Positions 2,072-48,969 of a DNA stretch of 64,000 nucleotides are shown here, piece by piece; the first letter of the stretch is position 1; every line of letters starts with the position of its first letter. This stretch comes from Incurvaria masculella. Its lineage: Eukaryota; Arthropoda; Insecta; Lepidoptera; Incurvariidae. The position numbers and the translations under genes are program-made. The notes under the pieces were generated by a model. It had not been told where the DNA came from and searched no databases. It saw only the letters and a list, made by a program, of their open reading frames with translations. The stretch is taken from assembly GCA_946894095.1 (NCBI GenBank), contig OX335641.1, positions 17,688,501-17,752,500 on the forward strand, in the 5' to 3' direction.

Positions 2072-2150
2072 GGTGTCAAATTGAATTACAACTGCTTCGC
2101 GCAAAGACCAGCAATGGAATGAATTCGAATTTATAGTTTTACTTTTTTTA

Positions 2151-2843: not shown

Positions 2844-2906
2844 TGCAACACCTGCGTTTACCTCGAAAATGTGTGTAAGTATACAGACATGTAGTTTCAG
2901 CTCGCA

Positions 2907-2953: not shown

Positions 2954-3024
2954 AGGCATGTCTTAGGAGATCTTGATTCAAAACACGTTTCTCAGCAGGA
3001 AGAGCTGCACACTCCCGCCTCGAA

Positions 3025-3467: not shown

Positions 3468-3493
3468 GCAATAATATTAAATAAGAAATTTAA

Positions 3494-3499
3494 AATAAA
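3494..3499 (+). terminator. Poly(A) signal of the small plus-strand gene
   Basis: AATAAA 27 bp after the stop codon of the 108-residue gene. With the TATA box and splice signals it completes a compact transcription unit of roughly 0.5 kb. Confidence 0.5.
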
Positions 3500-4388
3500 A
3501 GATATCAGTTAGTAGTATACTCGTTTGTTTCATTGAAATTTCCAATTTTCACAAATGTTTTATTGAAAATGTAATCAATTTCAATTTAACTAAATATTGA
3601 ATAAAAAATATTCCATAACCATAGATAGATAGATATTGCGATATTTTAAACAATTCATGCACTCCTTAGACGGTGTCATGTTTTACTTTCCATTTGCCTC
3701 TGCTCCTCCTCTATTTAAGGAAGGAAATGTAACAATCATTTGAAAAACCTCATTAATTCAATGGATTTTTATAAAAGTTTACCCGCTCAATATTTACGCC
3801 TCCCTTTAATTTATTTTGAAAAATAATTCCTATTGAAACCGCTACGAAAATGTCTTTGCCGGTTTTATTTTCCAATATCCAAAAACATGCAGACGTAGAT
3901 AATTATTAATTGATATTCTATTAAAATTAGGTTAATGGGCAGAGTGGTTTTTTAAAATGATCTTTTAACTATGTTTGTACTGAGAACATCGCTTACTGAC
4001 TCGACTTAAGAATGGTCCGGCAGCTATGATTCCTAATTGTAAGTAGTTAGACACTGAAGAAGTAATCTGAGCATTATCAGCTGTTTAAGATTTTTTAGTA
4101 AGGCTGCATATTTTTAACTTTAAATGTATAATTTCTATAATATGAGCTGTTCAAAACTGTTCAAGTTATATTTTCTTCATTTTGAGCTCTGTTCATCAAT
4201 CCCCCATGGCTTTAAGTGATCTAGCTCTACATTCGAGACCTACTCATCTAGATGTTCCGACTGCACATGCGAATATAATAGCTCCATTAAAATGTCTTTA
4301 AATCTGGAAAATAACACAAATAAAACACAAAATTAAGACAAAGAGTTTATTTTCTATAGTTAAAAACGATGATTACATATATCTTAAG
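3500..4388. other. Intergenic spacer inside the Polinton
   Basis: No convincing ORF on either strand. The only clear signal is TTTATT at 4346-4351 (AATAAA on the minus strand), 38-43 bp past the polymerase stop, the likely poly(A) signal of the polymerase message. The small plus-strand gene and polymerase gene therefore converge on this spacer. Confidence 0.6.
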
Positions 4389-7300: not shown

Positions 7301-7886
7301 AATAGCCATCGAAAGTCTTAAGGTTTAAGCAGCTTTTTGTGGCCTGTATTTTTTTCGGAAGTTCTAAATACGTACCTCCTCTGAAAGGACTGTATTTATT
7401 TACATTCACTTCTAGGTGGCTTGCCTCATCAAAAGACCAGCCAGACTCGCACAATTCAAATTCCGATGTTTTAGTCTTCATTTTATCAATTAAACGCGTG
7501 TACAAGCCTTCGATATCAGTACTACGTAATATTATAACATTCTTTGTTTGAAAAGATTTAATTTCTCTCTTATCATTTTTCGGTAAAACATAGAACGCAA
7601 ATAGTTCGAAGTTAACTTTAACAGAACAGTGAGTGCGCACGCTGCGCTGAATGATAGTGCAGACTTCGAACGATATATTTTCTAAGAATGTTTCTGGGGT
7701 ATTCGCATCTGTTCCTTCACGCGGAATTATTTTGAAGCTGCTTATTCTGCGTTTGAAAGCGGAAGATATCAACTTTACATTTTCTAAATCAGTGTCGGTT
7801 AAACATTTCGATTTATGCAAAAGACTCCTCTTGTGAGATGCGAATTTATTGGGAGGAATATCATAACCACAAATACTACAGTACAT
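4389..7886 (-). CDS. POLB: Protein-primed family-B DNA polymerase of Polinton type
   Basis: 1,165 residues from the first ATG (7886). Order: C2H2 finger (C3, C6, H18, H24). A cysteine-rich 'CFIWCIMAHLHP' segment near 190-300 follows, typical of animal Polinton polymerases. A second finger has 'CDKC', and an endonuclease-VII/HNH-like block 'DHDHFTGMYRGAAH' with Cys pairs lies near 450-485. Exonuclease motifs: 'YGDFE' (D364, E366), 'HNLAGYD' (N503, D508) and 'YMKCD' (D659). Polymerase motif A is 'YLDCVNLYG' (D755), motif B 'KKQNNAIFGK' (near 900), motif C 'YTDTDSL' (from 1007). All catalytic acids are present and the frame is unbroken. The enzyme replicates the element's linear DNA in the nucleus from a protein primer. 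Length fits animal Polinton polymerases. Confidence 0.97.
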   Translation of the reverse strand: MYCSICGYDIPPNKFASHKRSLLHKSKCLTDTDLENVKLISSAFKRRISSFKIIPREGTDANTPETFLENISFEVCTIIQRSVRTHCSVKVNFELFAFYVLPKNDKREIKSFQTKNVIILRSTDIEGLYTRLIDKMKTKTSEFELCESGWSFDEASHLEVNVNKYSPFRGGTYLELPKKIQATKSCLNLKTFDGYCFIWCIMAHLHPAKRNVCKLSSYPHFKNMINIKGMKFPVSFDDVALFELNNSAISINVYGLDRNNDVNGPLYLTPSRKECHVNLLYIERCGKSHFCLIKDLCKLTRHQVTKHKSKMFICDKCLVYFCNEEKIKSHECARVRTVLPPPDTWVSFEHYERTQRIPIVIYGDFESLLRECSVRSNSGHTERVQIHEATSFSYYICCKSKPELNKLVSYRGPNCGQKFVDSLVEDSELLLNLLSKDAPIKALTCQQRRLHRTAAHCHFCNGLLLDDIVMDHDHFTGMYRGAAHSHCNLTAKKCPFLPVIFHNLAGYDCHLFIRELATIAGRMTIIAKNKEKYISFTKFILADPEGLSQIKFIDSLNFLTSSLEKLAKTLPREKFFHLKKYIRNDSRLEMIKQKGIYPYDYIDSWTRYNEGTLPNRKDFYNTLTSTSISNEDYSHACKIWKAFDIKNLGEYTDLYMKCDVLLLADIFENFREISLTHYKLDPAYYVSSPSLSWDAMLHYTKVELELISNFDMFKMFEKGIRGGLAQCSHRYAKANNKYLPDFDQNYDSTFLIYLDCVNLYGFAMMKKLPCSGFTFLSSEDIKYFDVCKISNDSDIGFVLEVDLAYPTKLHDDHSDLPFAAKKFVPPGCTNSKLIANLYDKYNYIIHYVHLKECIAHGLIVRKIHSIIKFKQDNYLQPYIELNTKLRQLASSDFERDFFKKQNNAIFGKTIENKRNQVNIKLVNKWKDTTNKTNKSVGAEKLISLPNFKSISVLSENLAVVQLQQQEIYLDRPIYIGFSVLELSKSHLYNFHYSVMKEKYGRNIKLCYTDTDSLLYFVRTPDFYADLKNNISHFDTSNFPADNIYEIPAVNMKIPGFFKDELGGKVISEFIGLRAKLYCIETADETIKKAKGVKCAALKTIDAKLFKNALDNGVSVRKNMCVIRSRKHKVFTEKINKLVLCNRDEKRIMCTNKYTTLPYGHYKSLL

Positions 7887-8047
7887 TTTAGATAAAATCA
7901 ATTAATTCTAAGAGCTATATTTAAATTATGTAAAAATATTATATTTCTTTTAATTTGGTGTTGTTAAAAAAATATCAAATTAATAATTCTCAATATATTG
8001 ATATTCTTAATAGTTGGGATAGGTTATAATAATGTTATGTTAAATTT

Positions 8048-8602
8048 TTAGTTCGCATCTTCATACAACACGGGGGTTATTTCATCGAACTCTTCCTTGA
8101 CAGACTTGACGAATGTTTGCAATGCCCTCAACGCTAAACAATCCTCATCTAATCGTGTCCGCACGGCGAATACTGCCCTGCGCCAGCGATCTACTGCAGC
8201 CACCCGCTCGACCTCCGATGCCTTGTAAATGCGCGTCTCTACATAATATGCGCCTGCCCGCCGGGGATCTTCTTGTTTAGTATAACCGGCAGCTACTCGC
8301 TTCGTCAGCACTGAGGGCAAGACAGGCGCCTTCACCGGTGACGCGCGAGCCTTGCGCTCTTTTAGAACGCTAACCCCGTCTTCGTCTTCGGAAAAAATTG
8401 ACTTCTTTACCAAGACCGCAGATGTAGATTTCTTGCAGCGTTTGGTGGCCGCCGGCATAGAGACCGCCTCATCTTCTGAATCTGTTCCGAACAGGTGATG
8501 GCTCCGTTTCTTCAGCGTCGACTGCTTAAAACGCTTGTCCTTCTTTGCAGATACCTTCGACTGAACAGCTCCGCAGTTGTCGTCAGACTCGAACTGATTC
8601 AT
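8048..8602 (-). CDS. GC-richer ORF of unknown function beside POLB
   Basis: 184 residues from ATG at 8602. The ATG is preceded on the minus strand by a strong 3' splice site (plus-strand 8610-8630: polypyrimidine, ending TTCCTTAG), so a 5' exon upstream is likely. Residues 1-110 are hydrophilic and Lys/Ser-rich with two acidic-serine sites, 'TDSEDE' (40-45) and 'FSEDEDG' (70-76), of casein-kinase-2 type, and several basic NLS-like clusters. Residues 120-175 look helical ('VERVAAVDRWRRAVFAVRTR'). Codons are clearly richer in G/C than in the AT-rich polymerase next door, which suggests another origin or different constraint. I do not recognise the family. It may be an accessory gene of the element or a host-derived gene; stop and strand match its neighbours. 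Confidence 0.55.
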   Translation of the reverse strand: MNQFESDDNCGAVQSKVSAKKDKRFKQSTLKKRSHHLFGTDSEDEAVSMPAATKRCKKSTSAVLVKKSIFSEDEDGVSVLKERKARASPVKAPVLPSVLTKRVAAGYTKQEDPRRAGAYYVETRIYKASEVERVAAVDRWRRAVFAVRTRLDEDCLALRALQTFVKSVKEEFDEITPVLYEDAN

Positions 8603-8639
8603 GGAATTCCTAAGGAATATAAAAATACTAGTCAGCAAA

Positions 8640-14748: not shown

Positions 14749-15009
14749 AGTATTTTGTCTCAATATTACTCTTGGGCTAACATCGACACAGTATGAGCAA
14801 GAAACAAACTCGTTTGGGACTAATCGAGCGCACGGGCAAGTGAGTGGCTAAACCAGCATTATTATTGAATAACATCTAGCAGCGTCCCGAGTATTTTGGC
14901 TCACAACTACTCTTGGGCTAACATGACACAACATGAGTAAGAAACAAACTCGTTTGGGACTAATCGAGCGCACGGGCAAGTGAGTGGCTAAACGAGCATT
15001 ATTATTGAA

Positions 15010-17426
15010 CTAGCTGAGGTACCCGGCTCCGCTCGGGTCAATGTGTTTTTGGACTGATGTCGGGCTGTAACCCAAAGGGCTGGCCCAAAAGACTAGTCGA
15101 AATACTTTACTAACAGAAGATTAAACAATCTATCTACCAAAAAAAACTGGACCGAAATCCGTTGAGCCGATGTGGCATGATTGAATAAGAAAACATCCAA
15201 ATACTGCCATTTATAAATTCAGTGGAAGGAATGTACTTGAATATATTGCAAAACATTGGGGCCAATTAATTAATCGTTCTTTAAAAGCATTTGTCGCCGC
15301 GCTGGGACGATCCTGCACGGGCACTACTACACATTGCCATGGACGGAAAACACGGACATTTTTTTCTGCCGCTTCGACCATCTATCATGCAGTGCGATTG
15401 AACGTAACAAGTCGGGTGGGATTAACCTTAAAACCTAGTTTGTAAGAAAGGGGAGCTAATTTTTTAAGTGGAATCCGTACCACAACCAGCCTTAACATCG
15501 AAAACGGCCACCCATCCAAACCCCGACCGCGCCCATAGTTCGAGTGAGTAGTTCGTAAGTTATGAGCCTATAATCGCACCAGTCACCCCTCTCGTGATTT
15601 AGAGTGATGTACTCTGCCAATTTCCACATGCAGGAGCAGTCCACTTATTGTTTTGTTATAAATATGTAACCCTCCCTTCTCACTCCTCTGGTAAGTTAGA
15701 GTGATGTTAAGTAACTCATACGGCTAGACTTAGATACAATCCTCATCTAAATCGGGTAATTGGTTCTCATGTTATAAGCATTTCATACTACTGGTCACCT
15801 CTCTGGTAATTTAGCGTGATGGTTAGTAGCCCTAAAATTGCGGAAATAAATCGAGCTATACGTAGGTACAATTATGTAGCATCAATAAATGGATGAACCA
15901 GACGAAGAGCAACACAGTTTTTTAGTATTCAAATGACGAAATCAGCTGCCTACTACTCAGAATGTATTCTTCTGTAGGCAGCAATACACTGTAATACATA
16001 CGAGTAAACTTGTTGAATATATGTGACTTTTAGATATAAGTATGTTATATATATACTTTTCTTTGCATTGTATGTACTTTAGAGAATATGTTTTAAGAAG
16101 AAATAAATAAATACAAATGGTCACCCCTATATCACCCCCTTCATAGTGACTATAAATTGCATCGTTGTAATCAGATTTGTTTAACATTGTGTGAAGAAGC
16201 ACCTTGCCGGCCAAACAGTGCTCGACGGATCATTATAACGCTGTCCCTCCGTCCCCTTTCTACAATCGCTAAACTCGGAACAGGCAGGCAATGCACCCAT
16301 TCCCAGCCGACACTTAAAAATAAAAACCATCCGATCCTTTTGATCCTTATTTATAGGGTCGGTAAACTATGGAATCGACTCCATACCGATATATTTCCCC
16401 CAAAGTCCCCCGGGGTCGTTGAAACATGGGGTAAAAGAGGACCTGGCCGGCCGGCATGGTTTTCGTATTCCCCGTGAAAGTTCGAAATGCCGCGCTTGGC
16501 TTAGTACCTACTAATCTACCAAACAAAAAATAAGAAACCATTCAACTGAATCCGTAATCTTAACAATACGCGTTTAAACAATCAACCTAAAAAGCCCAAA
16601 CAAATGCGTGTAGCTAGGACACGGCTGTCGCGAAGTTAGCGGACCGCGCGGGTTGGTAGAAAGAATACAAAGAATTTACGTAAAAAATCTCATACTTATC
16701 CGTGTACCACACGACCACGGAGCGCCACTGCGCGCGTCTTGACTGAGGCGGCGCGGGCACTGCGGCGAGACGTGGCCGATCGCTCCCCGATTCCCCGAAT
16801 CACGGGAAATTTGAGGTATTTCGGGGAAAATGGTGGGGAATGCAAGCGTTGGGAAATTTGCGGGGAATCGGCCAATCCGTGGGAAATTTAGTTTTTTGGC
16901 CTTTTTATTTATCTTTTTTTCTTTGCTTATTCGAAAAATATATCGAACATTAAAGGAATCGGGGCAACTTTGGATTTCATCTTTTCCCGAAAGTTGTTCG
17001 GACGGCCGTCGACTGCACGACCTTTTTTTTGGTCATTCGAAATTTTCGATGAATATTTGGTTCCTATTCCGGATTTTTACGGAATTCCGGGAATACCAAG
17101 AACGTTTTTGGGGAATTGGAGGAGTGGTTATCGGCAACGCTGGTCGCCGTTTCGCGCGCTCGCGCGTAGGTACCTTCGGCTCGACTCGGCAATACTCGGT
17201 CCTCGTCGGGTGGCCGAGCCCTCTGACTATTTTTCTTTTCGTTCGGCTCCTAAGGGTCGTTACGTGATGTTCAATAGCTTAAAGCCTTCCTCAAGAATTC
17301 GGCTATCGAATGTAAAAATATAGTTTCAAACCTGACTGGTAGGTCCAGAGATTAGGGCGTTCAAACAAACAAAAAAAACAAAAAAACAAAGAAACAAACC
17401 CTTCAGCTTTATTATATTAGTATAGA
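15010..17426 (+). mobile_element. Composite retroelement unit E1
   Basis: Head 'ctagctgaggtacccggctcc' and tail 'cttcagctttattatattagtatagata' match the ends of a common lepidopteran RTE-type 3' family. Inside are a minus-strand SINE body piece (15,295-15,540), a short 'ggtaatttagngtgatg' repeat set (15,590-15,830), a decayed CR1-like reverse-transcriptase tail (16,225-16,480) and a GC-rich block with 'ggggaa' repeats (16,780-16,900). E1 carries about 290 bp near 15,890-16,180 that E2 lacks. Confidence 0.75.
16225..16480 (+). pseudogene. CR1/Jockey-like RT C-terminal relic in E1
   Basis: Reads 'YRVGKLWNRLHTDIFPPKSP' in one frame, the ending of CR1/Jockey-type reverse transcriptases, parallel to the better preserved copy at 18,457-18,909. 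Upstream residues are scrambled. No catalytic domain remains. Confidence 0.7.
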
Positions 17427-17567
17427 TAACGTCTAGCAGCGTCCCGAGTATTTTGGCTCACAACTGCTATTGGGTTAACAACGACACAGTATGAGTAAGA
17501 AACAAACTTGTTTGCCACTAGTCAAGCGCACGGGCTAGTTCGTGGCTAAACGAGCATTATTATTGAA

Positions 17568-19693
17568 CTAGCTGAGGTACCCGGCTCCGCTCGGGTCAAT
17601 GTCGTTTTGGACTGATATCGGGCTGAAACCCAAAGGGCTGGCCCAAAAGGCTAGTTGAACTACTTTACTAACAGAAGATTAAACAATGTATCTAACAAAA
17701 AAAAACTGGATCAAAATCCGTTGAGCCGATGTGGCATGATTGAATAAGAAAACATCCAAATACTGCCATTTATAAATTCAGTGGAAGAAATGTACTTGAA
17801 TATATTGCAAAATATTGGGGCCAATTACTGAATTGTTTTTTAAAAGCATTTGCCGCCGCGCTGGGGCGATCCTGCACTGGCACTACTACACATTGCCATG
17901 GACGGAAAACATGGACATTTTTTATTGCCGGTTCGACCATCCATCATTCACAGTGCGATGGTACGTAACAACTCGAGCGGGATTCACCCTACAACCTAGG
18001 TAGTAAGAAAGGGGAGCTATTTTTTACGTGGAATCCGTACCACAACCAGCATTAACATCGAAAACGGCCACCCATCCAAACCCCGACCGCGCCCATAGGT
18101 CCTGTACGTAGATGCAATCCACATATTAATCGAGTGAGTAGTTCGTAAGTTATGAGCCTTTAATCGCAACAGTCACCACTCTCGTGATCTAGAGTGATGT
18201 ACTCTGCCAAATTTCACATGCAGGAGCAGTCCACTTATTGTTTTGTTATAAATATGTAACCCTCTCTTCTCACTCCTCTGGTAAGTTAGCGTGATGCCTA
18301 TACGGCTAGACTCAGATACAAACCTCATCTAAATTGGGTAATTGGTTCTCATGTTATAAGCATTTCATACTACTGGTCCCCTCTCTGGTAATTTAGCGTG
18401 ATGCTTAGTAGCCCTAAAATTGCGGAAATAAATCGAGCTATACGGAGGTACAATTATCAGCTAAGTATCTGCTTGGCTCCCTGGACTCGATACAGCGTCG
18501 GGCCGTGCGTCTTGTCGACGATCCCAAGGTATCCCTTAATTTAGAGACCCTTCAACTCCGAAGGGATGTAGGTTCTCTCGATATATTCTATCGTCTTTAT
18601 CATGGAGAGTGCCCTTCGGAGCTGCACAACGCTGTCCCTCCGTCCCATTTCTACCACCGCACAACGCGGAACAGGCAGGGTATGCACCCATTAACTGTCG
18701 ACATTCCCAAAATAAGAACCCACCGATCCTCTATATATTTTTTCTATAGGGTCGGTAATCTATGGAATCGACTTCATACCGATATATTTCCCCCAAAGTC
18801 CCCCGGGGTCGTTCAAACATGGGGTGAAGGAGCACCTGGCCGGCCGGCATGGTTTTCGTATCCCCCGTTGAAAGTTCAAAATACCGCGCTTGGCTTAGTA
18901 CAAATCTAACAAACAAAAAATAAGAAACCGTTCAACTGAAACCGTAATATCTTAACAATACGCCTTTAAACAATCAACCTTAAAAGCCTAAACTAATGTG
19001 TGTAGCTAGGACACGGCTAATTGCTAAGTTAGCATACCGCGCGGGTTGGTAGAAACAATACAAACAATTTACGTAAAAAACCTCATACTAATCCGTGTAC
19101 CACACGACCACGGAGCGATGATCTCTGCAACCGCGTCTATCGTTAGCAATCGCGGGAAGCCGACTGGCGAGGGGCGCGGGCAGCATTGCCGATCGCTTGA
19201 AGCAATCGGGGACTTTGGATTTCATCTTCTCCCGAAAGTTGTTCGGACGGCCGTCGACTGCACGAACTTTTATTTTGCTCATTCGCATTGAAAATTTCGT
19301 TCCTATTCCGGATTTTTACGGAATTCCGGGAATCCTAAGAACGTTTTTGGGCAATTGTGGTTATCGGCAACTCTGGTAGCCGCTTCGCGCGCTCGCGCGT
19401 GGTACCTTCGGCTCTTCTCGGCAATACTCGGTCCTCGTCGGGTGGCCACCGCCGCCGTCTCGGCCCTCGCCGCGCTATCATTTCGTTTTCGCTCCGCGCC
19501 CTGACTATTTTTCTTTTTGCACGGCTCCTAAGGGTCGTTACGTGATGTTCAATAGCTTAAAGCCTTCCTTAAGAATTAGGCTATCGAATATAAAAATATG
19601 TTTTCAAACCTGACTGGTAGTTCCAGAGATTAGGGCGTTCAAACAAAAAAACAAACAAACTCTTCAGCTTTATTATATTAGTATTAGTATAGA
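17568..19693 (+). mobile_element. Composite retroelement unit E2
   Basis: Second copy of the composite unit, 2,126 bp, with the same head, SINE body piece (17,850-18,095), short repeat set, RT tail (18,457-18,909) and RTE-type 3' tail. Relative to E1 it lacks the ~290-bp segment and much of the 'ggggaa' block but keeps a longer RT fragment, so neither copy derives simply from the other. Confidence 0.75.
18457..18909 (+). pseudogene. CR1/Jockey-like RT C-terminal fragment in E2
   Basis: One frame reads through about 150 codons: 'LDSIQRRAVRLVDDP', 'LQLRRDVGSLDIFYRLYHGE', 'HRTTRNRQGMHP', 'YRVGNLWNRLHTDIFPPK'. These are the conserved C-terminal blocks after the polymerase domain of CR1/Jockey-clade LINEs. 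The catalytic 'YADD' region and the endonuclease are absent, so this is a 5'-truncated dead copy, as is usual for LINEs. Confidence 0.85.
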
Positions 19694-20097
19694 TAACATC
19701 TAGCAGCGTCCCTAGTATTTTGTCTCTTGGGCTAACATCGACACAGTATGATTAAGAAAGAAACTCGTTTGGGACTAATCGAGCCCACGGGCAAGTGCGT
19801 GGATAAATGAGCATTATTATTGAACAAAATCCAGTAGCGTCCCGGCCTGCGGGACCTGGATCGGTCTGAAATTTCCCAGGATTGTATGCCCGGAGAAACG
19901 ATGGAGCCCAGCGAGAAAATAAATATACTACCCACAAAAATGACCCTAAAAGAACACCTTTCATCATTCCTATATATCTGATTAGTATGCGGGTCAATAT
20001 TCTCAATTATTAGTTCTCAGAAATGTACTTACTATGAGTTCAGAGAAATACTTCTAAGAGATCTATTTTTATTTCGGCGGCACGGACTTGGACTTTA

Positions 20098-34510: not shown

Positions 34511-35384
34511 CAACTGCTAGTACCTTTAACATGTAGTCCATCGATGTGCATACATATTTTTTCTTGCAACATCTAAAATTGTTTTTCGCAGTGAAGTTCT
34601 GTTGTTAGCTCAATTTGTCAAGTTGCGACAAGTTTGTATCAGGGACGACTGCTCTCTACAGTATGTAACATGTAATGGTGCCATACGGAAACATGTGTTA
34701 AACATTTGAAATCATTGAATACATATTTGTTAATACATATGACTAAAATAACCAACCCACAAAGTGCCCAGGAGCCCATCGACAATTCCTCCAGGGAGTA
34801 TACATTTGTAACTTCTCCAACGAGCTATATTGAAAGGACGCATGCTTAGCTCGATGGGAATTGATTAGAAGCGGGATGATGGATTCGGCCCACCAGATCC
34901 ATGCTCGCTCTAGTTCATGGCCCGCGCGTTATGCGAGCACATTTGTGAGGGAAATCTCAGCTCGTTTGATCTTGCCCGCAGTTGATGAATGCCGGTCCGA
35001 GAGCGACCGACGCGCGAGGCCGATCGCCTCATAAATGTTTTCGAATTACGATACAACCCCTGATTTATAGACCCGGATCGACCATTAATATCGTGATATG
35101 AATATTGTGTCCGTTCGCCACTTTGTACATCGACAGAAGATTATGCTTCCGTTGAGATTTCATTATTATTGCTCGCAGGTCTTGCTTGATGAGCGTGCTG
35201 CAATTTTTACGACAAATTGGACGAAATATTATGTAATGAGCGTACAATGTAATGTTTTCATGTACTTTGTATGTCAAAATGAAAAGAAAGAAACCTCTAT
35301 GGCTGTACGTTTATGTGTTTTTTATATATGAGAAAGCTGACAAAAATCAGTGTAAAAAGATAAAGATCGTATTTTTATTGCAAT

Positions 35385-38300
35385 TGTGGACGGCCAGCCT
35401 CCACACTCAAAACATGATATATAAATACAACAAAGTAGCATCCTATAGGCATATGAAAGTTGCGTCGCGATGCCGCTTAGCGACAAGTAAAAATAATACT
35501 TTTGTTTTACGCACATCTGACTAAACATAAAATCAAGGTCATCGCAGGCTGAGGGGCGACGGGGGGGTCTGAGGTATGACCCTGAGCGACTGCGCAGGTA
35601 CAACGTTCGAAAGTACTCGAATAATGCTCTGCTTAGCGACAGGTAAATAATAATAAAATAATAAGAACACGACTCACGCGCCCAAGGCCAACGCCGGGCG
35701 AGGGGTGGAGAGCGGGTACAGAGGGGAGCCGGGAGGAAAGATGAGCGGGGGAGAGGGGAGAGTGCGCATGACCACTCGAAAAATGGCGGGATTCCAAGGG
35801 AGGGGCGAGGGGGATCAGAGCCTAGAACAGAAAAGGCGCGCGCGTCCCTCGTCAGTCGGTGGCGAGCGAGTCTCTGGGGCAGTATGCCTCTATTCAGGGC
35901 TTACGGCACGTAGGTTGAATACGCGGAAGTGTTTTACTAAGGAATTTGCACCTGCAAAGTCTTTTCCCTCGTTTAGATTTTATTTGGTGACATTGAAACG
36001 AGTCATTGAGTTTGAGAAAGTAGCAAAAGTGCAAATTTAGGAACGAGATGAGTTAGCTAAATAATCTATGTTTTCTTGCAGAGTAGGTAGATTTGCAAAC
36101 AGCTTTTGTTAAAATAGAGTGAAAGAATGGACGGCACTGGACCTTGGTAAGTCTGTACATATTGTTGGGGACCACAAGCGGTAGCAAACTGCGATGAGGA
36201 GCCTCGTGTGGGTGAGCCGACGACATATGTATTGATTGTATATCGAAGTTCGCGCGGCCTGTTAGATGTGCAAGCGCATTGGATGAAGGATTAGATATGC
36301 GGGTGTACTGCATTTTGAATTACGAATTGTATGAAGAGAGACTTTATAAAGTTCAAGGTAAGATTTTACGTGGAATAAAATCTCTGGTTATAGTGGGGGG
36401 GGGAGGATTATTTTGTGCTCAGATATTTTGTAATATATTCAGGAAAGACCTCGCGTGTGAAATGATGGTTCGTCGACTCGGACGAGGGTACAGGATGTGG
36501 TTTTACATGGAATAAAATCTTGTACTACAGGAGGAGGGTTTTCTGTGTTCGAATAATTTGTACAGTATTCGAGGAGGGGGCTTCACGTGGGTATTAAAGG
36601 TCCGATGGCTCGGATGAGGGTTACAGGCTGTGGTTTTACGTGGAACAAAATTTCGCCTCACAGGAGGATGGGTTTCTGTCTTTGATTTATATGGACTATA
36701 TTTAGGAAGGGCTTAGGAGTGTTTGGGTGTGAGTGAAATGAGGGAGTGCGTCAGCGCACGCTGAACCAGAAAGATATTAAATTCCTAGGATCAGTGTTGA
36801 ATAGTAGGACCTGGAGTCTATAGTGGGGGCGACGGAACAGTCACGTACACCGGTTCGCTTTTTCTAGATAAAATCTATCTAGCTAGCTACAAAAGAATAA
36901 AACGATATTTCTTCACAGAAATGTTAAGGCGATGGATGTTGAGTTGTGGGAAGCATGTCTAATCCACATATTTGTGCACGCTATGTGGATTTTTGTTTGC
37001 AGTGCAGCCAGAAAACGAGGCATTACGGGACATTCGGTCGGGTCTGGGATCTCTATGAGGTTCCATGCCAGATTGATTGTACCTTAAACGTAAATGTAGC
37101 ATCACTAACGAACATTCCGAGAAGCTGCGGATCCTGAATTTGAGCCTCAAGTTAGATTGGGCGGTACCCCTTTATACTGAAAGGAGCCGGAACCCATTAA
37201 GACTTTCATACTCAGTCAAACTCTAGAGAACCTTGAAAGGAAAATATAGTATTGGCATTATCGCACAAAACTACACTACGATAATACAATACATACCAAA
37301 AATCTCTCTGAACATAAATGACACTATGACACCGTATTTTAAATTGTTGTCATTTAGACCTTGGAGTCATGTTCCAATATTAAAATGTTACCTCGCTTGA
37401 GAGGAAGGCGGAGGCCATACTCTGGTTCGCTCGACAACCGGCGACCAGGTTGACTATCTTAATAAATACAAAATCTGAAGGCATATCCATCTTGGATTGA
37501 CCTCAGTGTACATTTCGCAGGCAACTTCCTGTTTCCCTGCTTAAATTAGTCGACAACCTTGAGGGTTTGTCATGACTGCGGATAACCGCTTATCTTGAAC
37601 TGCTGTTTCTATCAGCTCTTCTGAAAGCCTTTATTGGCTTTACCACGATCTGCCAAGTGCCGGAACCGTGAAAATGTGGAGACACTCTCATGACCTACCC
37701 TGAGTCCAGGAAAGGCTTGGCAACGCGTGTGACTAATGTCACTAGACGCGAAAATCTTTAAAGTGACTACGCTTTGGTACGTCCGGAGCAGTTCACGAAA
37801 CTACCCTTATGTCCATGCATTAGTAATGGCAGATGGGAGGGTCTGAGGTATGTCCTACATTCATGTGGGCTGGTACAAGACAGATTCGTAACTATGGTCA
37901 CCCGCCGTAGTTTTCCGTCACCGTTTGATCGGCTGACAAAACGAACATTCTTGTGATACCTAATGTGTCGTACTTGACGTTGTCAGTGGACACTCAAAAT
38001 ATATAGTGGTCATGTTGTAAATCCAATACCCCAATTGGTATATAATGAACCACATAAACTCATATTTCCCTACACGGGAATTGAACCTTGGTGTTCAGAG
38101 GCTCTATCTTCAGGATGGCTGGCCGCCGCTTTTTGAAGCAGAGGTCGCATATACAGCCTGAAGGCAGGAAGGCGATCATGTGGGGACGCGGGATAACAGT
38201 GCCATGGATGGACCTTGGACTGTGAGGGGCGTCACCATTACCCCATGGGGTAAAAATTTTTTTGAAGTTCTGGGCATGCTGAAATGCTCTATTCCAATCA

Positions 38301-38760
38301 ATTCAGATTTGTGTTAGTATGTGAGAGCGCGTGTATGAGAGAGAGCGAGATTATGTATCAGGTTAGGATAGGGAGAAAGGAACCGGTTAGAAGAACCGAA
38401 AGAGACAGACAGCTAGGTACAGGAGGAGGGCATAGCACCAATGAGGATTTGACAACAATATTCAGGAGAATACATGTTACCTAAGCAAGTAATGTAGTAA
38501 AATAACTAGATTTAACGTGAGCAAATCAGGAAACAGTAAATGGGAATATATTAGACGAATGGTTATGTAATGTAAATAATGAAAGCATATAGGACGATCA
38601 CGAGCCAATGGGGAGAACAAATGGGACGAGTGGATACATGGTAAATAGGTAATTAATGTAGGATGTATCCAAGGGAAATATAAGGTACATAACTTAGGTT
38701 AGATATGTATAAGCTAATGTAGGCTAGGAGTCTATTTAAGGGGGGGTCTGGAGGTTTACA
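35385..38760 (+). repeat. Left LTR (5' LTR if plus-oriented)
   Basis: 3,376 bp, TG...CA ends. Notable parts: TATATAAATA at 35418-35427; a GC-rich block at 35,680-35,900; splice-like sites at 36,081, 36,147, 36,358, 36,918 and 37,002; three degenerate ~135-bp tandem units from 36,364; AATAAA motifs within those units. Frames of 111, 86, 78 and 66 codons occur but are repeated unchanged in the other LTR and match nothing I know. Confidence 0.92.
36364..36765 (+). repeat. Three degenerate ~135-bp tandem units inside the left LTR
   Basis: Units begin at 36364, 36501 and 36634 with 'ttttacgtgg', 'ttttacatgg' and 'ttttacgtgg'. Each continues 'aat/caaaat...', a G-rich stretch, a 'ttcg/cagg' segment and 'cggatgagggttacagg'-like ends. 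The same array is at 46,168-46,569 in the right LTR. Confidence 0.75.
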
Positions 38761-39142
38761 GATGTTGCCGTGACCACAGGATGATTGTTGACAAGGACTT
38801 GTTTATATCTTTAAGCAAATCCTACAATTAAAAAGAACCAAGGTTACTAAAGGACACAACAAAGAAAATGGGTCAAATAGCGTAGTCATATTATTCGTAT
38901 TTGTTCACGAAAAATAACTAAGAAAATACTTGAAGCAAAAGAATAAAAATATATAAAAGTAATAAGACGTAAAATTGTCAGCAGGGAAATAGTTAAACGC
39001 GGTTAGTCGGTTCACGGAAAAATAAAATCATGTTTGTAAACAATTCTTAACATATTACATTGTTGTTGTAATTTATTAATGTATATTATGAAACTATGGA
39101 AAGAGATTAGGGAGTATAGGATGTTTCAACAGCACGAGAGCG

Positions 39143-39208
39143 GTTGTGTGATTACGCCACCAGCGCATTGAATGCGTTGTGTGATCGCGCCACTAGCGCA
39201 TTGGATGC
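39143..39208 (+). repeat. 33-bp tandem duplication
   Basis: 39143-39175 and 39176-39208 share 'gttgtgtgat', 'cgccac.agcgcattg.atgc' with four or so changes; followed by a GC-rich 'gatcgcgcgagcgcgacg' palindromic stretch. Confidence 0.8.
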
Positions 39209-42200
39209 GTTATGAGAGACGCGTTGATCGCGCGAGCGCGACGCCGAACGTCTACCTCTGGGAATGCTCAGAGGTACCTACCAGGTAAATTGTTTGACTA
39301 CAGTTTAGAATGTGTGAAAACTATTGCTCATGGGTTCAGAATTACTTTAAAAAAATAGTACAAAGGTTAGTACCTTAGGAAATTGTTAATTATGTGTTCT
39401 GAAATGTTTTATCCGCAGGTAAGTCGGTATAAAATTGGTTGTGCTAATGAATTGTGTACTAAACAGTGTTATGAGTTTCAGCTTAAATTAAGTTCTGTAC
39501 CATTCTTCAATAATCCACTCTTATGGTGATCTCCATCTTATATGTATGTGTTACTCTCGTACCATTAACATTTTAATAATTGTAATTACACACGCACGTT
39601 AAAGTCGGCAGAAATAAAAATAATAAAACCTAACTAAATTACGTCTCACTACGGTAAACAATCAAGGAAGTGAGATCTTTTAGGTTTCTTTAAATAGAGA
39701 ACCAATTTTCCACGAACGAAAATCGGTCAAAGGAAGATTTGCATTTAGGATCGGTTGGTTCCGTTGAGCTGATAGAACTGAATAATGTCTCCTCAAGGCG
39801 AACGTTGTCTTAGTATTTATATTAACATAGATTTCTATTTTACTATAGGAAAATTACGGATTACTAGACGAAAGGGTTGGCTGAAGTCAGGACCGATTAT
39901 ATGGGGGGCCGATTGGGGTCCGAGGGATGGGGGCAATGTTGTGGGGGCGACCAAGCCTAATGAAATTATGTTTTAATTACTATTATTGACTACGCTTGCT
40001 GTAGATTTACCATTTCACTTTAAATTATTTCGTTAAAACATTAATTAAATGTTCGTACCCTGTCGAAATTATGGGGGCGACTGATTTAAAAGTGAACCTG
40101 AATTACCGAGGCGTCTGATCCACCGCTGAGTATTAGAGAGATCATGAGTCGAACACGTGGCGGAGATTGTAGAAGTATCGTGTGCGTAATATTTGCGTTG
40201 ACCATTGGTCACGGGAAAGTATTGATAAAGTGCACTGGTCATATGTAATATATTAATAGAAACAAAGGTAAAGAGTGATAGGGTAAATAAGTCGTTGTGC
40301 GGAGAGGAATATTTTAAAATGAGGTATGAGCCAAATTGAACTTAGTTGGGTAACATTTAGTTGATATATAATATTTTGGTTGTCGCATGGGGTCCGTAAC
40401 GAAGACGAAGTCTGAGAGTAGGTATAATATTAGTATTAAAATGGAGTGAGTAGAAAAACATGGGAACTTAGTTTGTAAACCATCATGTAACTTAAATATT
40501 GGTTAAAACTTTTGTGACAGCAAGAAAGGAAATAATAATTATTATATTTTTTATTACAGTATTACATATTTTGTGAGGTTATTATAATATTGAAAGGTAA
40601 CATTGATTTAGATGGGGGGGCGCGGGGCGGTCCCGGCCGCTCCAACCGTCGTTCGTTCAGAGCGGTTGTGCCGACTCGGGCGGGGTCAACTCGCGCGCCG
40701 GACAGCGGGTGTACATACCTATACAGCCACATGGATTGGTGGCGCGAGCGACGAGTCACGTGATACGTGCGTCTCGGGTCACAGAGGGAGCGTCATGGAA
40801 GATATTATTATTGAATAACGGAACCGCGCGCGCTTATTACCATTATTCTAGAGATTGTGTTTTAAAGATAGATTAATTATGAATGAAGGAATGATTAGTT
40901 ATGTAGTTATGGATGTTAGATATTAAAGAAGACAGACTCTTTGAAGGTTACGATATACCATCGGGGTTTAGTTATTTTTTTTTTAGTTTAAAAGTTGGTG
41001 TTATTTGATAGGAATAAGGGATTAAAATTTTGCGGCTTATAGTGCAATTACTTAGACATGTTTACAACAATGAAGTGCAGATAGCCTTGAGTGAGTGAGG
41101 AAGATTCGAGAACAAAACGAGAATTAGTAATGACTATGAGGTTATGTAAGGATGAGATAAACTAGAGTTAGGGTTCCGTAGAGATTGAAAAAAAAAAGGG
41201 GGACGAGTACTAGGAGTGAATTTGTTGTTACAGTCTATTCCGATGAAATCTGAGATCTGAATGTTCGGGTCGGAGGTGCATATTAGTACGAGTGTTGGAC
41301 TTAGGGAGGATAAAATGATGTGTGGGTGGCTTCGCGATAACGAGTTGTGGATATTTTATTGTATGAAGGCGGGGGCGAACGTTGTGCTATGATGCGATAT
41401 CATGATGTTTGGATGTTAGTCGGGGTGATGTTTGCATGCGTTTTAGCCACAAGAAGGTTGACGTCATTATCGTATACGAGAGCGAGAGGTGTGGAATGGG
41501 AAATATTTAGTTAGGGATGGGTCGGTTACTGTATATAGGGGATCCCGTCGCTGACCGTGTTGATAGTGGGCGATGGTGTATTACCTTTTGGAGAAAGATA
41601 ATAATAATAATTTATTTAACAATTTTTTATTGATTTCTTTTAACAATAATGTTGACGGGTATTTAAAATTTAATACAATTCGGTGAATACTATTTTCGTA
41701 TTTTGAGATTATTCGGACACAAATCTGAATTTATTTAGATTGACATAGTATTGACGGCCAAGTATTTTGGCTTGCGTTTTGAGTATTATTGTAACGTAGT
41801 TCGAGCAGGTGTATCATGCAAGTGGTAGGGTTTTGAAAAAAAAAATAAAGGCAAACTGGAGAAGGGGAACGCGTTGCGGTATAAATAAATATATATATAT
41901 ATATACATATACGTATGGTATTAAGTGAATGAAGGTATTGTTTAATTATCAAAGAGTGGCAATTGAAATCGTTGTTTCATTTCAATTGGGATCAAGAGAA
42001 TCAAGGTTATCGTTAAATATGTGTTTGATTTCAGGAGTCGGGTTAAAAAAAAAAAAAAAAAAAATTTTTAAAAAAATTTAGGAAGAAGATAGGGTTACAT
42101 TCTGGGGGAGGGGGGTATTACGAGTGATGATGGCATAGGCTATTTAAGCGTGTCCCTTTCCCTAGAGTTCAACTTTAGTGTAAGTGAAATAGTATTAAAA

Positions 42201-44784
42201 GTGTGGATAGACTTAGTGAACGGGAGCATTGAAACGGTCTTATTGTGAGGTGACGACGGGTTATCTAAATATTTTCAGAAGTAGACAGGAAAATTGCGAG
42301 TGGTTCTAGCAAGTAGGGAAGTGAACTTAAATTTGAACTTGAGCGAACGTTGTTGGAAGATTGCGCGGGAAATTTCGAATACTTAGTTCAGTGTGACCAC
42401 GGAATTGGAAAATAAGTTAGAAGTGACAGTTGCTCCAATATTGGCGACGTACTACGACCAAGGAGTCAGTATACGAGTTTGCGGCGGTGTTTCGCGGGAC
42501 CACGGAATTGGGGAAAAGGTGGAAGTGATATTTCCGCTATGGCTGAGGGGGGGATCAGAGACTAGGAGGGCGTGGGGGCGATCGTATTCGGCTACATATA
42601 TTTATGATAATCAGATAGGGGGGGGGGGGGGTAGAAGGATAATGGGGGTTTCGGTAAGTTAAGGGTAGAGGTGTTTAGAATGGGGGGGGGGGGGGTTAAA
42701 AAAAAAAGGGGGATTAGTGTAAGAGTGTGTTTGAGTGGATTCAATGGTATAGTTTTCTTTGATATTTTGTGTGATTTATTATGATTATTAAATTGATTAT
42801 TGAAAGAATATTTAGTGAGACAGAGTGTGAGCCATGGGTGTGTTTGATTAGGTTTTTCTTTGCTGAGCAGTAATTGAAATATCGTAAATATAAATCACTT
42901 AGTTTTTTATTACCATAGATATGAAGCTTAAATAAGGTTCTCTGGATTATTTGATTAAATCATTCATTTATTAGACTTTGTTTTAGATTATAAATTATTA
43001 CATTTGATTTATAGTGATGATTTCACTGTGATGGTTTGTTAAAAAATATTCGAGGACAACATCAAATAATTACCTTGATATTTTGATGGTTTCAGCGAGT
43101 TGCCAAGGTTGAAACTAAATAATCTGCTGATGGTAAATATACAATGAACTACATACAAATGCACTTAATAAATTGTGGTTCAAGGAATTAAATATATTTT
43201 TATTTTATTACTTTAAGCTTCAAATCAGTAAATTTCAAATCATGTAGATTTTGAAGAGGAAAGGCTTTGATGTGTTTCAACCAATATTTTCAGAACATCT
43301 TTTGTTCAATGTATTCTCTACTCGTTTGAGTTGTCTTCGATCACGATATATGTGAGATAATTTTCACATACGTTTTCCAAACGTTTGATTTATTAACGAT
43401 CTATACTTCCTGCATTTTATGTTGGTGGTTTTACCAACTTTAAATTGATTCTTGGTATGGATTATGAGGTCGGCTACGATTCAATTTAACTGAATTGTAG
43501 AATACCTGTCTTGATTAAAGTAAAATGACATGGATTCTGTGGAGATCTCAATAAAATAACAAAACAAATAGAGTTCATCCACATTGCTAGTTGACCGTGT
43601 TGTCTGATGGCCAATTATGGAGATATGAGTGCCTTTTGTGTTCATGGCTTAACTAGTTCTGGAAAGTCGTTTATGAAGAAGATCCTTAGCTGAATAGCGG
43701 GTGACTTCCACCGATGGATCAGTTGTCAAGATGGGAACTTGCATACTGCAACGTGGGAAGTATTGGTTAACCTTCAAAACCACACACTCACCCGGAGTGC
43801 AACGTTGACGAGTACTACTAGTGAATTGACCATGAATACATAGGGTAAACATTGTTCATATTGTTCCCAGAGAACAACTGAAAACACCATACAATTTCAA
43901 TGCGAATTTGAGGTTCGGTCATTGTGTATTTCAGACTATAAAGTTTGAATTGCTTGAATACATTAAACAACTTCCTGAACCATTCCATATTAGGGCATTG
44001 TGATCATATAATGACTGTGTTCACTAAATCAGCCCAATGTCAGAGGAAAAATGCCAGAACCACACCTATTTATTAATGGCGAGTACAGGCATTTGCAGGG
44101 TTTAGCACGCTGCTGCGTGACGCTGAGGTGGCAGTAAAATCCAACCTTTCATAGTTGGTATGCTCTATGTACAACAATAATCCGAAAATGACCATGTCAT
44201 TCATGCAGTAACATCCAACCTTCATGGTTGGTATGCAAATAGATTCAATCAAGTTATTTGATCATATCATAAGCTTGACCTCCCTGTTGGCAGATGTAAA
44301 GTAGAGATCAGTAATTTGGATCTCTTTATACTTTGCTAAATTTTGAGCATGGAAATTTCTTCAAAATTTGTAACAACAAAGAGGAGAAAGCGATTCGAAT
44401 ATTTAGGCAGGTTTTCACTTGGTTGAGCGGTGGAGAACATTTTTAAATTTTGAATGGGGCTCTACTATTGGGGCCTAGCTCAAAATCGTCTTAATTTTTA
44501 TAATTCTTTTAAATTTCCGCGAATTTTCATTTTATTTGTTTTTATCGAAGTTTATTGAGCAGCAATATAATAACTTCTGCTGAAATATTTGATATTTTCT
44601 TAGTTAAAGAATAAGAGAAGAATATATACAATATAGTATGGGTGAGTAATATTTTAGTTGAATACTTAGGAAACTCTATTTGAGGTTAAGTATAAATGAT
44701 TGGATTAAAATTAGATTAATAATACTAGACGAACACGTGCCTTTATTAGTCATTATTATTATTATTATTAGTCTTTATTGGTAG

Positions 44785-44930
44785 ATAGGTATAGGTATGC
44801 TAGGTTAGGTTTGGGCTGTAGGTGGTTATAGTTAGATTAGATTGGGTTAGGCTGGTAAGATTAGGATAAATTATGGATGTAGGTTAGGTTAAATAAGTTG
44901 ATTACTTTGGAGGAGGTTAGATTAAGTTTA
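44785..44930 (+). repeat. Degenerate TTAGG-like stretch
   Basis: Many 'ttagg', 'ttaga' and 'ttgggttagg' words in one orientation on the plus strand. The insect telomere repeat is TTAGG. This may only reflect the G/T/A bias of the element. Confidence 0.4.
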
Positions 44931-45188
44931 AAAAAAAAAAAAAACAAAAAAAACAACAACTACAAAGTTAGGTAGGAAACGAAACAAAAAAAAATATGGG
45001 AAATTCACAGTAGATAAAAGGATGTTGATGGTAATTTTGAGTTGGGGGCGTGGTTGAGGTTTCCTTAATATGGAATAAAGACATTATTTTATTTTATGTT
45101 GTAACAATTGTCCTTACCTTATTGAATTAACTGCTTCCCTGCGTGTGGCATCGTGTGCCATGTGCAGTCACAGTTAATTGGGGGCGGC

Positions 45189-48100
45189 TGTGGACGGCCA
45201 GCCTCCACACTCAAAACATGATATATAAATACAACAAAGTAGCATCCTATAGGCATATGAAAGTTGCGTCGCGATGCCGCTTAGCGACAAGTAAAAATAA
45301 TACTTTTGTTTTACGCACATCTGACTAAACATAAAATCAAGGTCATCGCAGGCTGAGGGGCGACGGGGGGGTCTGAGGTATGACCCTGAGCGACTGCGCA
45401 GGTACAACGTTCGAAAGTACTCGAATAATGCTCTGCTTAGCGACAGGTAAATAATAATAAAATAATAAGAACACGACTCACGCGCCCAAGGCCAACGCCG
45501 GGCGAGGGGTGGAGAGCGGGTACAGAGGGGAGCCGGGAGGAAAGATGAGCGGGGGAGAGGGGAGAGTGCGCATGACCACTCGAAAAATGGCGGGATTCCA
45601 AGGGAGGGGCGAGGGGGATCAGAGCCTAGAACAGAAAAGGCGCGCGCGTCCCTCGTCAGTCGGTGGCGAGCGAGTCTCTGGGGCAGTATGCCTCTATTCA
45701 GGGCTTACGGCACGTAGGTTGAATACGCGGAAGTGTTTTACTAAGGAATTTGCACCTGCAAAGTCTTTTCCCTCGTTTAGATTTTATTTGGTGACATTGA
45801 AACGAGTCATTGAGTTTGAGAAAGTAGCAAAAGTGCAAATTTAGGAACGAGATGAGTTAGCTAAATAATCTATGTTTTCTTGCAGAGTAGGTAGATTTGC
45901 AAACAGCTTTTGTTAAAATAGAGTGAAAGAATGGACGGCACTGGACCTTGGTAAGTCTGTACATATTGTTGGGGACCACAAGCGGTAGCAAACTGCGATG
46001 AGGAGCCTCGTGTGGGTGAGCCGACGACATATGTATTGATTGTATATCGAAGTTCGCGCGGGTTGTTAGATGTGCAAGCGCATTGGATGAAGGATTAGAT
46101 ATGCGGGTGTACTGCATTTTGAATTACGAATTGTATGAAGAGAGACTTTATAAAGTTCAAGGTAAGATTTTACGTGGAATAAAATCTCTGGTTATAGTGG
46201 GGGGGGGAGGATTATTTTGTGCTCAGATATTTTGTAATATATTCAGGAAAGACCTCGCGTGTGAAATGATGGTTCGTCGACTCGGACGAGGGTACAGGAT
46301 GTGGTTTTACATGGAATAAAATCTTGTACTACAGGAGGAGGGTTTTCTGTGTTCGAATAATTTGTACAGTATTCGAGGAGGGGGCTTCACGTGGGTATTA
46401 AAGGTCCGATGGCTCGGATGAGGGTTACAGGCTGTGGTTTTACGTGGAACAAAATTTCGCCTCACAGGAGGATGGGTTTCTGTCTTTGATTTATATGGAC
46501 TATATTTAGGAAGGGCTTAGGAGTGTTTGGGTGTGAGTGAAATGAGGGAGTGCGTCAGCGCACGCTGAACCAGAAAGATATTAAATTCCTAGGATCAGTG
46601 TTGAATAGTAGGACCTGGAGTCTATAGTGGGGGCGACGGAACAGTCACGTACACCGGTTCGCTTTTTCTAGATAAAATCTATCTAGCTAGCTACAAAAGA
46701 ATAAAACGATATTTCTTCACAGAAATGTTAAGGCGATGGATGTTGAGTTGTGGGAAGCATGTCTAATCCACATATTTGTGCACGCTATGTGGATTTTTGT
46801 TTGCAGTGCAGCCAGAAAACGAGGCATTACGGGACATTCGGTCGGGTCTGGGATCTCTATGAGGTTCCATGCCAGATTGATTGTACCTTAAACGTAAATG
46901 TAGCATCACTAACGAACATTCCGAGAAGCTGCGGATCCTGAATTTGAGCCTCAAGTTAGATTGGGCGGTACCCCTTTATACTGAAAGGAGCCGGAACCCA
47001 TTAAGACTTTCATACTCAGTCAAACTCTAGAGAACCTTGAAAGGAAAATATAGTATTGGCATTATCGCACAAAACTACACTACGATAATACAATACATAC
47101 CAAAAATCTCTCTGAACATAAATGACACTATGACACCGTATTTTAAATTGTTGTCATTTAGACCTTGGAGTCATGTTCCAATATTAAAATGTTACCTCGC
47201 TTGAGAGGAAGGCGGAGGCCATACTCTGGTTCGCTCGACAACCGGCGACCAGGTTGACTATCTTAATAAATACAAAATCTGAAGGCATATCCATCTTGGA
47301 TTGACCTCAGTGTACATTTCGCAGGCAACTTCCTGTTTCCCTGCTTAAATTAGTCGACAACCTTGAGGGTTTGTCATGACTGCGGATAACCGCTTATCTT
47401 GAACTGCTGTTTCTATCAGCTCTTCTGAAAGCCTTTATTGGCTTTACCACGATCTGCCAAGTGCCGGAACCGTGAAAATGTGGAGACACTCTCATGACCT
47501 ACCCTGAGTCCAGGAAAGGCTTGGCAACGCGTGTGACTAATGTCACTAGACGCGAAAATCTTTAAAGTGACTACGCTTTGGTACGTCCGGAGCAGTTCAC
47601 GAAACTACCCTTATGTCCATGCATTAGTAATGGCAGATGGGAGGGTCTGAGGTATGTCCTACATTCATGTGGGCTGGTACAAGACAGATTCGTAACTATG
47701 GTCACCCGCCGTAGTTTTCCGTCACCGTTTGATCGGCTGACAAAACGAACATTCTTGTGATACCTAATGTGTCGTACTTGACGTTGTCAGTGGACACTCA
47801 AAATATATAGTGGTCATGTTGTAAATCCAATACCCCAATTGGTATATAATGAACCACATAAACTCATATTTCCCTACACGGGAATTGAACCTTGGTGTTC
47901 AGAGGCTCTATCTTCAGGATGGCTGGCCGCCGCTTTTTGAAGCAGAGGTCGCATATACAGCCTGAAGGCAGGAAGGCGATCATGTGGGGACGCGGGATAA
48001 CAGTGCCATGGATGGACCTTGGACTGTGAGGGGCGTCACCATTACCCCATGGGGTAAAAATTTTTTTGAAGTTCTGGGCATGCTGAAATGCTCTATTCCA

Positions 48101-48564
48101 ATCAATTCAGATTTGTGTTAGTATGTGAGAGCGCGTGTATGAGAGAGAGCGAGATTATGTATCAGGTTAGGATAGGGAGAAAGGAACCGGTTAGAAGAAC
48201 CGAAAGAGACAGACAGCTAGGTACAGGAGGAGGGCATAGCACCAATGAGGATTTGACAACAATATTCAGGAGAATACATGTTACCTAAGCAAGTAATGTA
48301 GTAAAATAACTAGATTTAACGTGAGCAAATCAGGAAACAGTAAATGGGAATATATTAGACGAATGGTTATGTAATGTAAATAATGAAAGCATATAGGACG
48401 ATCACGAGCCAATGGGGAGAACAAATGGGACGAGTGGATACATGGTAAATAGGTAATTAATGTAGGATGTATCCAAGGGAAATATAAGGTACATAACTTA
48501 GGTTAGATATGTATAAGCTAATGTAGGCTAGGAGTCTATTTAAGGGGGGGTCTGGAGGTTTACA
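45189..48564 (+). repeat. Right LTR
   Basis: Partner of the left LTR, offset 9,804 bp, same length and ends. All frames and internal repeats are reproduced; the only change I noticed is 'gcggcct' to 'gcgggtt' near 46,060. Confidence 0.92.
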
Positions 48565-48969
48565 CAATGATCGGCTGTTACCTACACTCAGACAATTAAT
48601 AAATAAAATCATAATGTCCATTCTTCAATTCAATTTAATTAAAATCAATTTGTGTATGCTGCAAAAGATTAGCAGATTTTCATAATGATTTTTCATGTTG
48701 AGCTTCATAAAGCAACGGACGATCATTTGCACAGTTTGAATATCGCCGTGATTTAAAATCTAAATATAACAGTTTATATTGGAATCGCCTAAAGAAGATG
48801 ATGCTGACTTTGTCTAAAAATTGTTTTCTGAAAGATAGTCCAGAACCTCGTCTAGCTCAATATCATTAAGACACAGTCGAATGTATCTAGTGCGAAGGGG
48901 GCATAACTCTGCAAACTGGAATTTTCGATTTCTACCTGATTCATAAAATTCTGGGTGTCAGTATATAGT

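What the first reader, a model, noticed from the sequence alone, without database searches (positions are those of the whole stretch)
35381..48568. Recent LTR element with 3.4-kb LTRs and a 6.4-kb non-coding interior in an insect
Direct repeats with TG...CA ends, a 4-bp duplication CAAT, and near-identity show a recent integration by the retroviral route. The interior nevertheless lacks any long ORF. Large non-coding LTR elements (LARDs) are known mainly from plants; an animal one with LTRs over 3 kb would be unusual. It must depend on a partner for reverse transcription and integration.
Basis: partly seen in the sequence, partly recalled or inferred. Interest (0 to 1): 0.88.

Follow-up and report, generated by a model that had tools for sequence, protein, structure and literature searches.

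The report
Non-coding jumping element with giant ends
This is one of about ninety copies of a young insect mobile element that seems to encode no protein and probably borrows the enzymes of a related, protein-coding element in the same genome, an arrangement best known from plants and the mouse.

Summary
35385-38760 and 45189-48564 are 3376-bp repeats with 2 mismatches, TG...CA ends and a CAAT duplication. The longest stop-free frame of the interior, 100 aa, is within chance. It is a family: 83 junction pairs, 77 with interiors of 6.15-6.74 kb; none of 89 located interiors has any of the 121 listed pol hits in it or within 6 kb. Eight of 11 copies examined have exact 4-bp duplications; 9 of 10 LTR pairs differ by 0-4 substitutions. 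A subfamily has LTRs of about 5.45 kb. The primer site is of tRNA-His type: 11 of 84 copies carry its exact 14-mer, the window copy an altered one. A second family, B, shares primer site, leader, LTR tip and tract form; 9 of 18 near-full B leaders are followed by pol, 8 in an intact 1198-aa frame. The window element's interior holds about 2.1 kb of B-like LTR. Verdict: a real, recent, non-autonomous LARD-type family, with B (Ty3/Gypsy) as candidate helper; help in trans is inferred.

The parts
35381..35384 (.). target-site duplication CAAT, left copy
35385..38760 (+). 5' LTR, 3376 bp
   Evidence: 2 mismatches to the 3' LTR, no gaps
38763..38782 (+). primer binding site of tRNA-His type, altered in this copy (one substitution and two extra bases against the exact 18-nt site of other copies), after a 2-nt spacer
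38763..38863 (+). start of leader, about 70% identical to the leader of family B
38761..45188 (+). non-coding interior, 6428 bp, shared by the other copies
42722..44833 (+). stretch related to the last 2.2 kb of the LTR of family B (main blocks 82-86% identical), up to the end of that LTR
45174..45188 (+). polypurine-tract-like sequence TTAATTGGGGGCGGC
   Evidence: 85 of 89 listed junctions match the 26-nt pattern exactly
45189..48564 (+). 3' LTR, 3376 bp
48565..48568 (.). target-site duplication CAAT, right copy

Best explanation
A recently inserted copy of a non-coding, non-autonomous LTR retrotransposon family (called A here). Its LTR would drive a non-coding RNA that carries a tRNA-His-type primer site just after the LTR, a leader, and a purine tract just before the 3' LTR, so that Gag and Pol made by another element can package it, copy it and insert it with a 4-bp duplication. 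The best candidate helper is family B of the same genome, a Ty3/Gypsy element with 3.7-kb LTRs, the exact primer site, a related leader and LTR tip, and copies with intact pol frames. Shown: LTRs, duplication, family, lack of long frames, primer site and tRNA-His genes, mosaic copies, coding and non-coding forms of B. Inferred: transcription, packaging, help by B, and common descent of A and B.
For: LTRs, ends and duplication; 83 junction pairs, reversed controls 0; exact 4-bp duplications in 8 of 11 elements; 0-4 substitutions between LTRs in 9 of 10 elements; interior shared by the copies read, without long frame, no pol hit in 89 interiors. Mosaic identity along copies. tRNA-His genes: 10 pattern matches, 3 of 3 fetched confirmed by ARAGORN. 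Family B: same primer site, leader and LTR tip 70%, gag-like, protease and RNase H/integrase frames, 8 intact 1198-aa frames.
Against: No expression or movement was seen. In 73 of 84 copies the primer site has a mismatch at its third base, though copying from tRNA should tend to reset it. Three of 11 elements lack an exact duplication. One of 10 LTR pairs differs by 27 substitutions and 11 gaps. Most of the A LTR and leader do not match B. Only the 121 best pol hits of 1499 candidates were listed, and only 100 of 220 LTR starts, so a distant coding element with A-like LTRs is not excluded. Mismatches among copies are uneven by codon position (643, 789, 603), though not independent counts.
Confidence: 0.85

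Rival explanations
1. Family A is non-autonomous as stated, but its helper is not B: another Gypsy element supplies Gag and Pol, and the likeness to B reflects descent and captured sequence only.
For: Many other Gypsy pol genes with open frames exist, next best 42-47% identical to B. Forty of 100 listed tRNA-His 14-mer sites fell outside A, B and the contig-end class; most were not examined. Most of the A LTR does not match B.
Against: No other family was found that shares primer site, leader and LTR tip with A; of the 40 unassigned sites none had a listed pol hit within 12 kb downstream, with 49 of the 121 pol hits tested.
Confidence: 0.3
2. A is a relic class: a once coding element that lost gag-pol, spread in the past, and keeps its LTRs alike by gene conversion rather than by recent copying.
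For: Several A lineages exist, up to 102 substitutions from the window LTR (304 for the long form), and mosaics could come from conversion.
Against: Intact 4-bp duplications together with LTRs that differ by 0-4 substitutions at separate sites; non-coding interiors with the same junctions in 83 pairs.
Confidence: 0.08
3. Assembly error or segmental duplication.
For: Head-to-tail arrays sharing LTRs and one copy near a run of N are places where assemblers can err.
Against: Different duplications in different places and the same internal junctions on 21 contigs.
Confidence: 0.01

Closest known systems
LARDs, large retrotransposon derivatives (barley and relatives; Kalendar 2004 as cited in PMC3532108, passages read)
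   Same: Kilobase-long LTRs (about 4.4 kb there, 3.4-5.5 kb here), conserved interior without protein-coding capacity, many copies.
   Different: Animal host; interior longer (6.4 kb against about 3.5 kb); a coding family with the same primer site lies in the same genome and part of its LTR lies in the interior.
ETn/MusD and VL30 of the mouse (recalled, no call)
   Same: Non-coding LTR elements of an animal that depend on a coding relative.
   Different: Short LTRs; helper shares most of the LTR; retrovirus-like elements, not this Ty3/Gypsy group.
PbTRIM of the harvester ant (PMC3532108, passages read)
   Same: Insect, non-coding LTR element.
   Different: Under 1 kb; no partner identified there.
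Helenus and Ajax (PMC10886601, passages read)
   Same: Non-coding LTR elements, animals included; helper inferred from shared primer site, some of them tRNA-His.
   Different: Their LTRs derive from tRNA or 5S rRNA; no such likeness was found here.
Cassandra tandem arrays (PMC7215508, passages read)
   Same: Head-to-tail units that share LTRs.
   Different: Plants, small elements with a 5S rRNA domain in the LTR.

Membership tests
LTR retrotransposon | near-identical direct LTRs with TG...CA ends and a short target duplication | tested here: met
   exact duplication in 8 of 11 elements
LTR retrotransposon | tRNA primer site after the 5' LTR and purine tract before the 3' LTR | tested here: met
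   exact 14-mer in 11 of 84 copies, altered in the window copy
LARD | long LTRs and large interior conserved among copies, without coding capacity | tested here: met
LARD | moved by another element's proteins | not testable with these tools
   candidate helper only
Ty3/Gypsy (family B) | pol with RT/RNase H and integrase of Gypsy type | tested here: met
   RT_RNaseH E 2.1e-30, RT_RNaseH_2 E 2.1e-28; Integrase_H2C2 23.6 bits is under its cut-off of 25.5; RVP 22.7 over 20.7
Ty3/Gypsy (family A) | own pol | tested here: not met
   no pol hit in 89 interiors; A is tied to Gypsy by inference only
TRIM | under about 1 kb in all | tested here: not met
   13.2 kb
Helenus / Ajax | tRNA- or 5S-derived sequence in the LTR | tested here: not met
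   the only match at E 1 or better is SNORD81 in the interior, 25.5 bits against a gathering score of 50

The most novel reading that the evidence does not exclude
Family A is a parasite of family B that has taken about 2.1 kb of its helper's LTR into its own body as a working part (promoter, packaging signal, or pairing sequence for co-packaging with helper RNA), has exchanged the front part of its own LTR (3.4- and 5.45-kb forms), and keeps moving with a drifted primer site. With B itself split into coding and internally deleted forms, one insect genome would hold a three-tier chain of autonomous, deletion-derived and wholly non-coding elements evolving together.
Probability: 0.2. Interest if true: 0.65.

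Novelty: new variant of a known kind. Interest (0 to 1): 0.5.

Why it matters
A large non-coding LTR element with a coding relative in the same animal genome makes testable which short cis-acting parts suffice to be copied by another element's enzymes. The parts found shared by A and B are few (LTR tip of about 100 bp, 2-nt spacer, tRNA-His site, about 100 bp of leader, tract form), while most of the LTR and much of the interior differ. LTRs of 3.4-5.5 kb are, as I recall, very long for an insect.

Tried and rejected
Self-priming by an LTR stretch complementary to the first 40 interior bases: no complementary word of 8-10 nt was printed. Small-RNA origin: nothing near an Rfam threshold. A hidden coding version among oddly sized A interiors: the six outlier pairs were fetched and compared. 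Three hold insertions (about 3.9, 2.3 and 0.6 kb), one a tandem duplication, one a deletion, and one is an A element nested in another. Pieces of B gag, protease and pol found nothing in them at E 0.01. A gene in the LTR: the 172-aa stop-free frame is whole in 3 of 10 LTRs read and shifted in 7, and its first ATG is at residue 125. A PDB search with the 1170-aa frame at 4389-7901 gave nothing. Literature; none of their listings shows an animal LARD with a named helper, but the library holds open-licence papers only.

Limits and corrections. An earlier count said that the long-LTR copy C6:12815941 has the exact primer site; it has the altered one. One search tested 49 of the 121 pol hits; one search repeated the test for family A with all 121. 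The 83 pairs use 82 distinct 3' junctions, because two 5' junctions on C12 were paired with one; the true 3' end of the outer C12 element is one of the 7 unpaired. The LTR-start pattern had 3 reversed-control matches and the tRNA-His 14-mer 1. A join in the C7 copy of B lacks one base, so its computed spacing of 7685 is really 7686.

Full report
Observation. The 6428-bp interior has no stop-free frame beyond 100 aa; 234 of 300 first-order Markov sequences reach that. The LTR has one of 172 aa, which only 10 of 300 reach, but it is whole in 3 of 10 copies' LTRs and shifted in the other 7. Five frames of the element had no Pfam match at E 0.01, and the one Rfam match at E 1 or better is far under its threshold.

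Family. Patterns across the 5'LTR/interior and interior/3'LTR junctions match 84 and 89 places in the 552-Mb genome (up to 3 mismatches, reversed controls 0). They give 83 pairs on 21 contigs, 77 with an interior of 6153-6736 bp; the others are 4749, 7103, 7696, 8736, 10446 and 13073. Six of the 7 unpaired 3' junctions have a primer-site match about 6.5-6.6 kb away, so 89 interiors were located; the seventh fits the outer element of a nested pair on C12. The LTR-start pattern has 220 matches (control 3), the first 100 listed. None of the 121 listed pol hits lies in or within 6 kb of the 89 interiors.

Recent and repeated movement. LTR pairs of 10 elements were compared: nine differ by 0, 0, 0, 1, 1, 1, 2, 2 and 4 substitutions; the tenth, C6:0.33M, by 27 and 11 gaps, and a run of N stands before the next LTR there. 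LTRs of the nine other elements differ from the window LTR by 12 to 102 substitutions, 304 for the long form, so several lineages have been moving. Of 11 elements with both flanks read, 8 have exact 4-bp duplications: CAAT, TACC, AGCA, TACT, AGTT, CGTT, CGCC, AGTG. One has 3 of 4 bases alike and two have none. With 2.9e-9 changes per site and generation (a butterfly rate, recalled), the window copy would be about 100,000 generations old.

LTR forms. For 41 elements of contigs C1-C10 whose listed LTR start I matched to a 5' junction, the 5' LTR is 3.22-3.43 kb in 33, 5.43-5.48 kb in 7 and 9.67 kb in one. In the one long form read, the LTRs are 5471 and 5470 bp with 1 substitution and 1 gap. It matches the window LTR at 76% in the first 1.3 kb and at 96% in the last 2 kb, with about 2 kb between them that the window LTR lacks.

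Mosaics. In 400-bp steps, C14:12.34M is 98.9-100% identical to the window copy in the LTR but 90-96% over 39161-41560; C10:11.69M is 90-99% up to about 41960 and 99.5-100% after it. Template switching between co-packaged RNAs would give this; gene conversion could too. Of 312 indels among the interiors read, 59 are multiples of three in length; mismatches by codon position are 643, 789 and 603, uneven but not independent.

Primer. Two bases after the LTR, 11 of 84 copies read TGGTGCCGTG and 73 read TGTTGCCGTG. The 11 hold the tRNA-His 14-mer. Five distinct copies of these were read further, and all five continue GGAT, an exact 18-nt complement of the tRNA-His 3' end with CCA; one other, on C15, continues with the extra bases; the remaining five were not read. 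The window copy has the altered site. Ten places match 22 nt of the tRNA-His gene, and 3 of 3 fetched are tRNA-His(GTG) by ARAGORN. Both leader subtypes occur with both site types, as copying from the tRNA, or recombination, would give.

Family B. The 14-mer led to a second element. Its copy on C7 has LTRs of 3721 bp (6 mismatches in 3552 compared), TGTGG...TTACA ends, a 2-nt spacer, the exact 18-nt primer site, AGGAGGCGAC before the 3' LTR, and an interior of about 4 kb with a relic of the G-patch/protease frame. Its longest stop-free frame is 109 aa, reached by 28 of 300 Markov sequences. The B leader has 20 matches, 18 of nearly full length. Nine of these have B pol 5.46-5.80 kb downstream, 8 in an intact 1198-aa frame and one with a stop; the other 9 have none there, one of them a 36% identical pol hit 9.7 kb away. 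Three pieces of a coding unit on C16 show a 287-aa gag-like frame (Arc_capsid_dom, 18.7 bits, under its cut-off of 27), a 218-aa frame with G-patch and RVP, and a 333-aa frame with RNase H and integrase zinc-binding matches. Four such units stand head to tail there at 12.12-kb spacing.

A and B. The last 108 bp of the A LTR, the primer site and the start of the leader match B at 70% (E about 1e-8). The rest of the A LTR shows no match to B. Instead, window 42722-44833, inside the interior of A, matches the last 2.2 kb of the B LTR, main blocks 82-86% identical, up to its end. So A and B look related at their cis-acting ends, and A carries a B-type LTR piece inside. The order of events is not known.

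Arrays. By the junction coordinates, A forms head-to-tail arrays with one shared LTR between units: four units on C18 at 0.73-0.77 Mb (3383 bp between interiors, three times), two on C18 at 15.08 Mb and two on C9 at 17.04 Mb. Such arrays are described for Cassandra in plants (PMC7215508, passages read).

Mechanism. The most likely course: A RNA starts in the LTR, carries in cis what reverse transcriptase and integrase need, and takes the proteins from elsewhere, B being the best candidate (my odds 0.6 for B, given that A is non-autonomous). All that is shown is at the level of DNA.

Comparison. By structure this is a LARD. PMC3532108 (2012, passages read) says LARDs had been reported only from plants; later insect papers hold the term (listing only). 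ETn and VL30 of the mouse are animal parallels (recalled). It is a known kind, unusual in host, size, and relation to its candidate helper.

Noticed in passing
window 1091-8638, minus strand: Frames of 337, 255, 1170 and 196 aa; the 255-aa one matches Pox_A32 packaging ATPase (25.5 bits, cut-off 22.8), the 1170-aa one weakly Endonuclease_7. It may be a Polinton/Maverick or adintovirus-like element (a reading of mine, from memory of those elements); a PDB search with the 1170-aa frame gave nothing.
   Followed up: partly
contig ends, e.g. L031, L039, L040, L052: Units of about 37 bp next to TTAGG-type runs contain the tRNA-His 14-mer, often followed by GGAT; 42 of the 100 listed 14-mer sites lay within 60 kb of a contig end whose length I knew or of base 1. 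Why a primer-site-like word sits in subtelomeric repeats is unexplained.
   Followed up: no
window 38763-38782, and 73 of 84 copies of A: The altered primer site (third base T) persists in most copies of a family that moves, although copying from tRNA-His should tend to restore it.
   Followed up: partly
L063:846-1499: The protease frame of family B begins with a G-patch domain (49.1 bits), which I recall from betaretroviruses.
   Followed up: no
window 14749-19844: Several related repeats of 0.1-1 kb, 79-93% identical, in direct order, with frames of 145 and 134 aa.
   Followed up: no
window 36364-36711 and 46168-46515: A diverged tandem duplication (about 71% identical, offset about 137 bp) inside each LTR.
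   Followed up: no
interior positions 3140-3200 (window about 41900-41960): Three separate A copies (C22:11.19M, C10:11.69M, C12) have insertions at nearly the same place in an AT-rich stretch.
   Followed up: no
L045 and L048 (C5:24.55M, C6:4.06M): Two near-identical sites with LTR-end-like sequence before an exact tRNA-His 14-mer, with no stop-free plus-strand frame of 90 aa in 3 kb; perhaps a third family.
   Followed up: no
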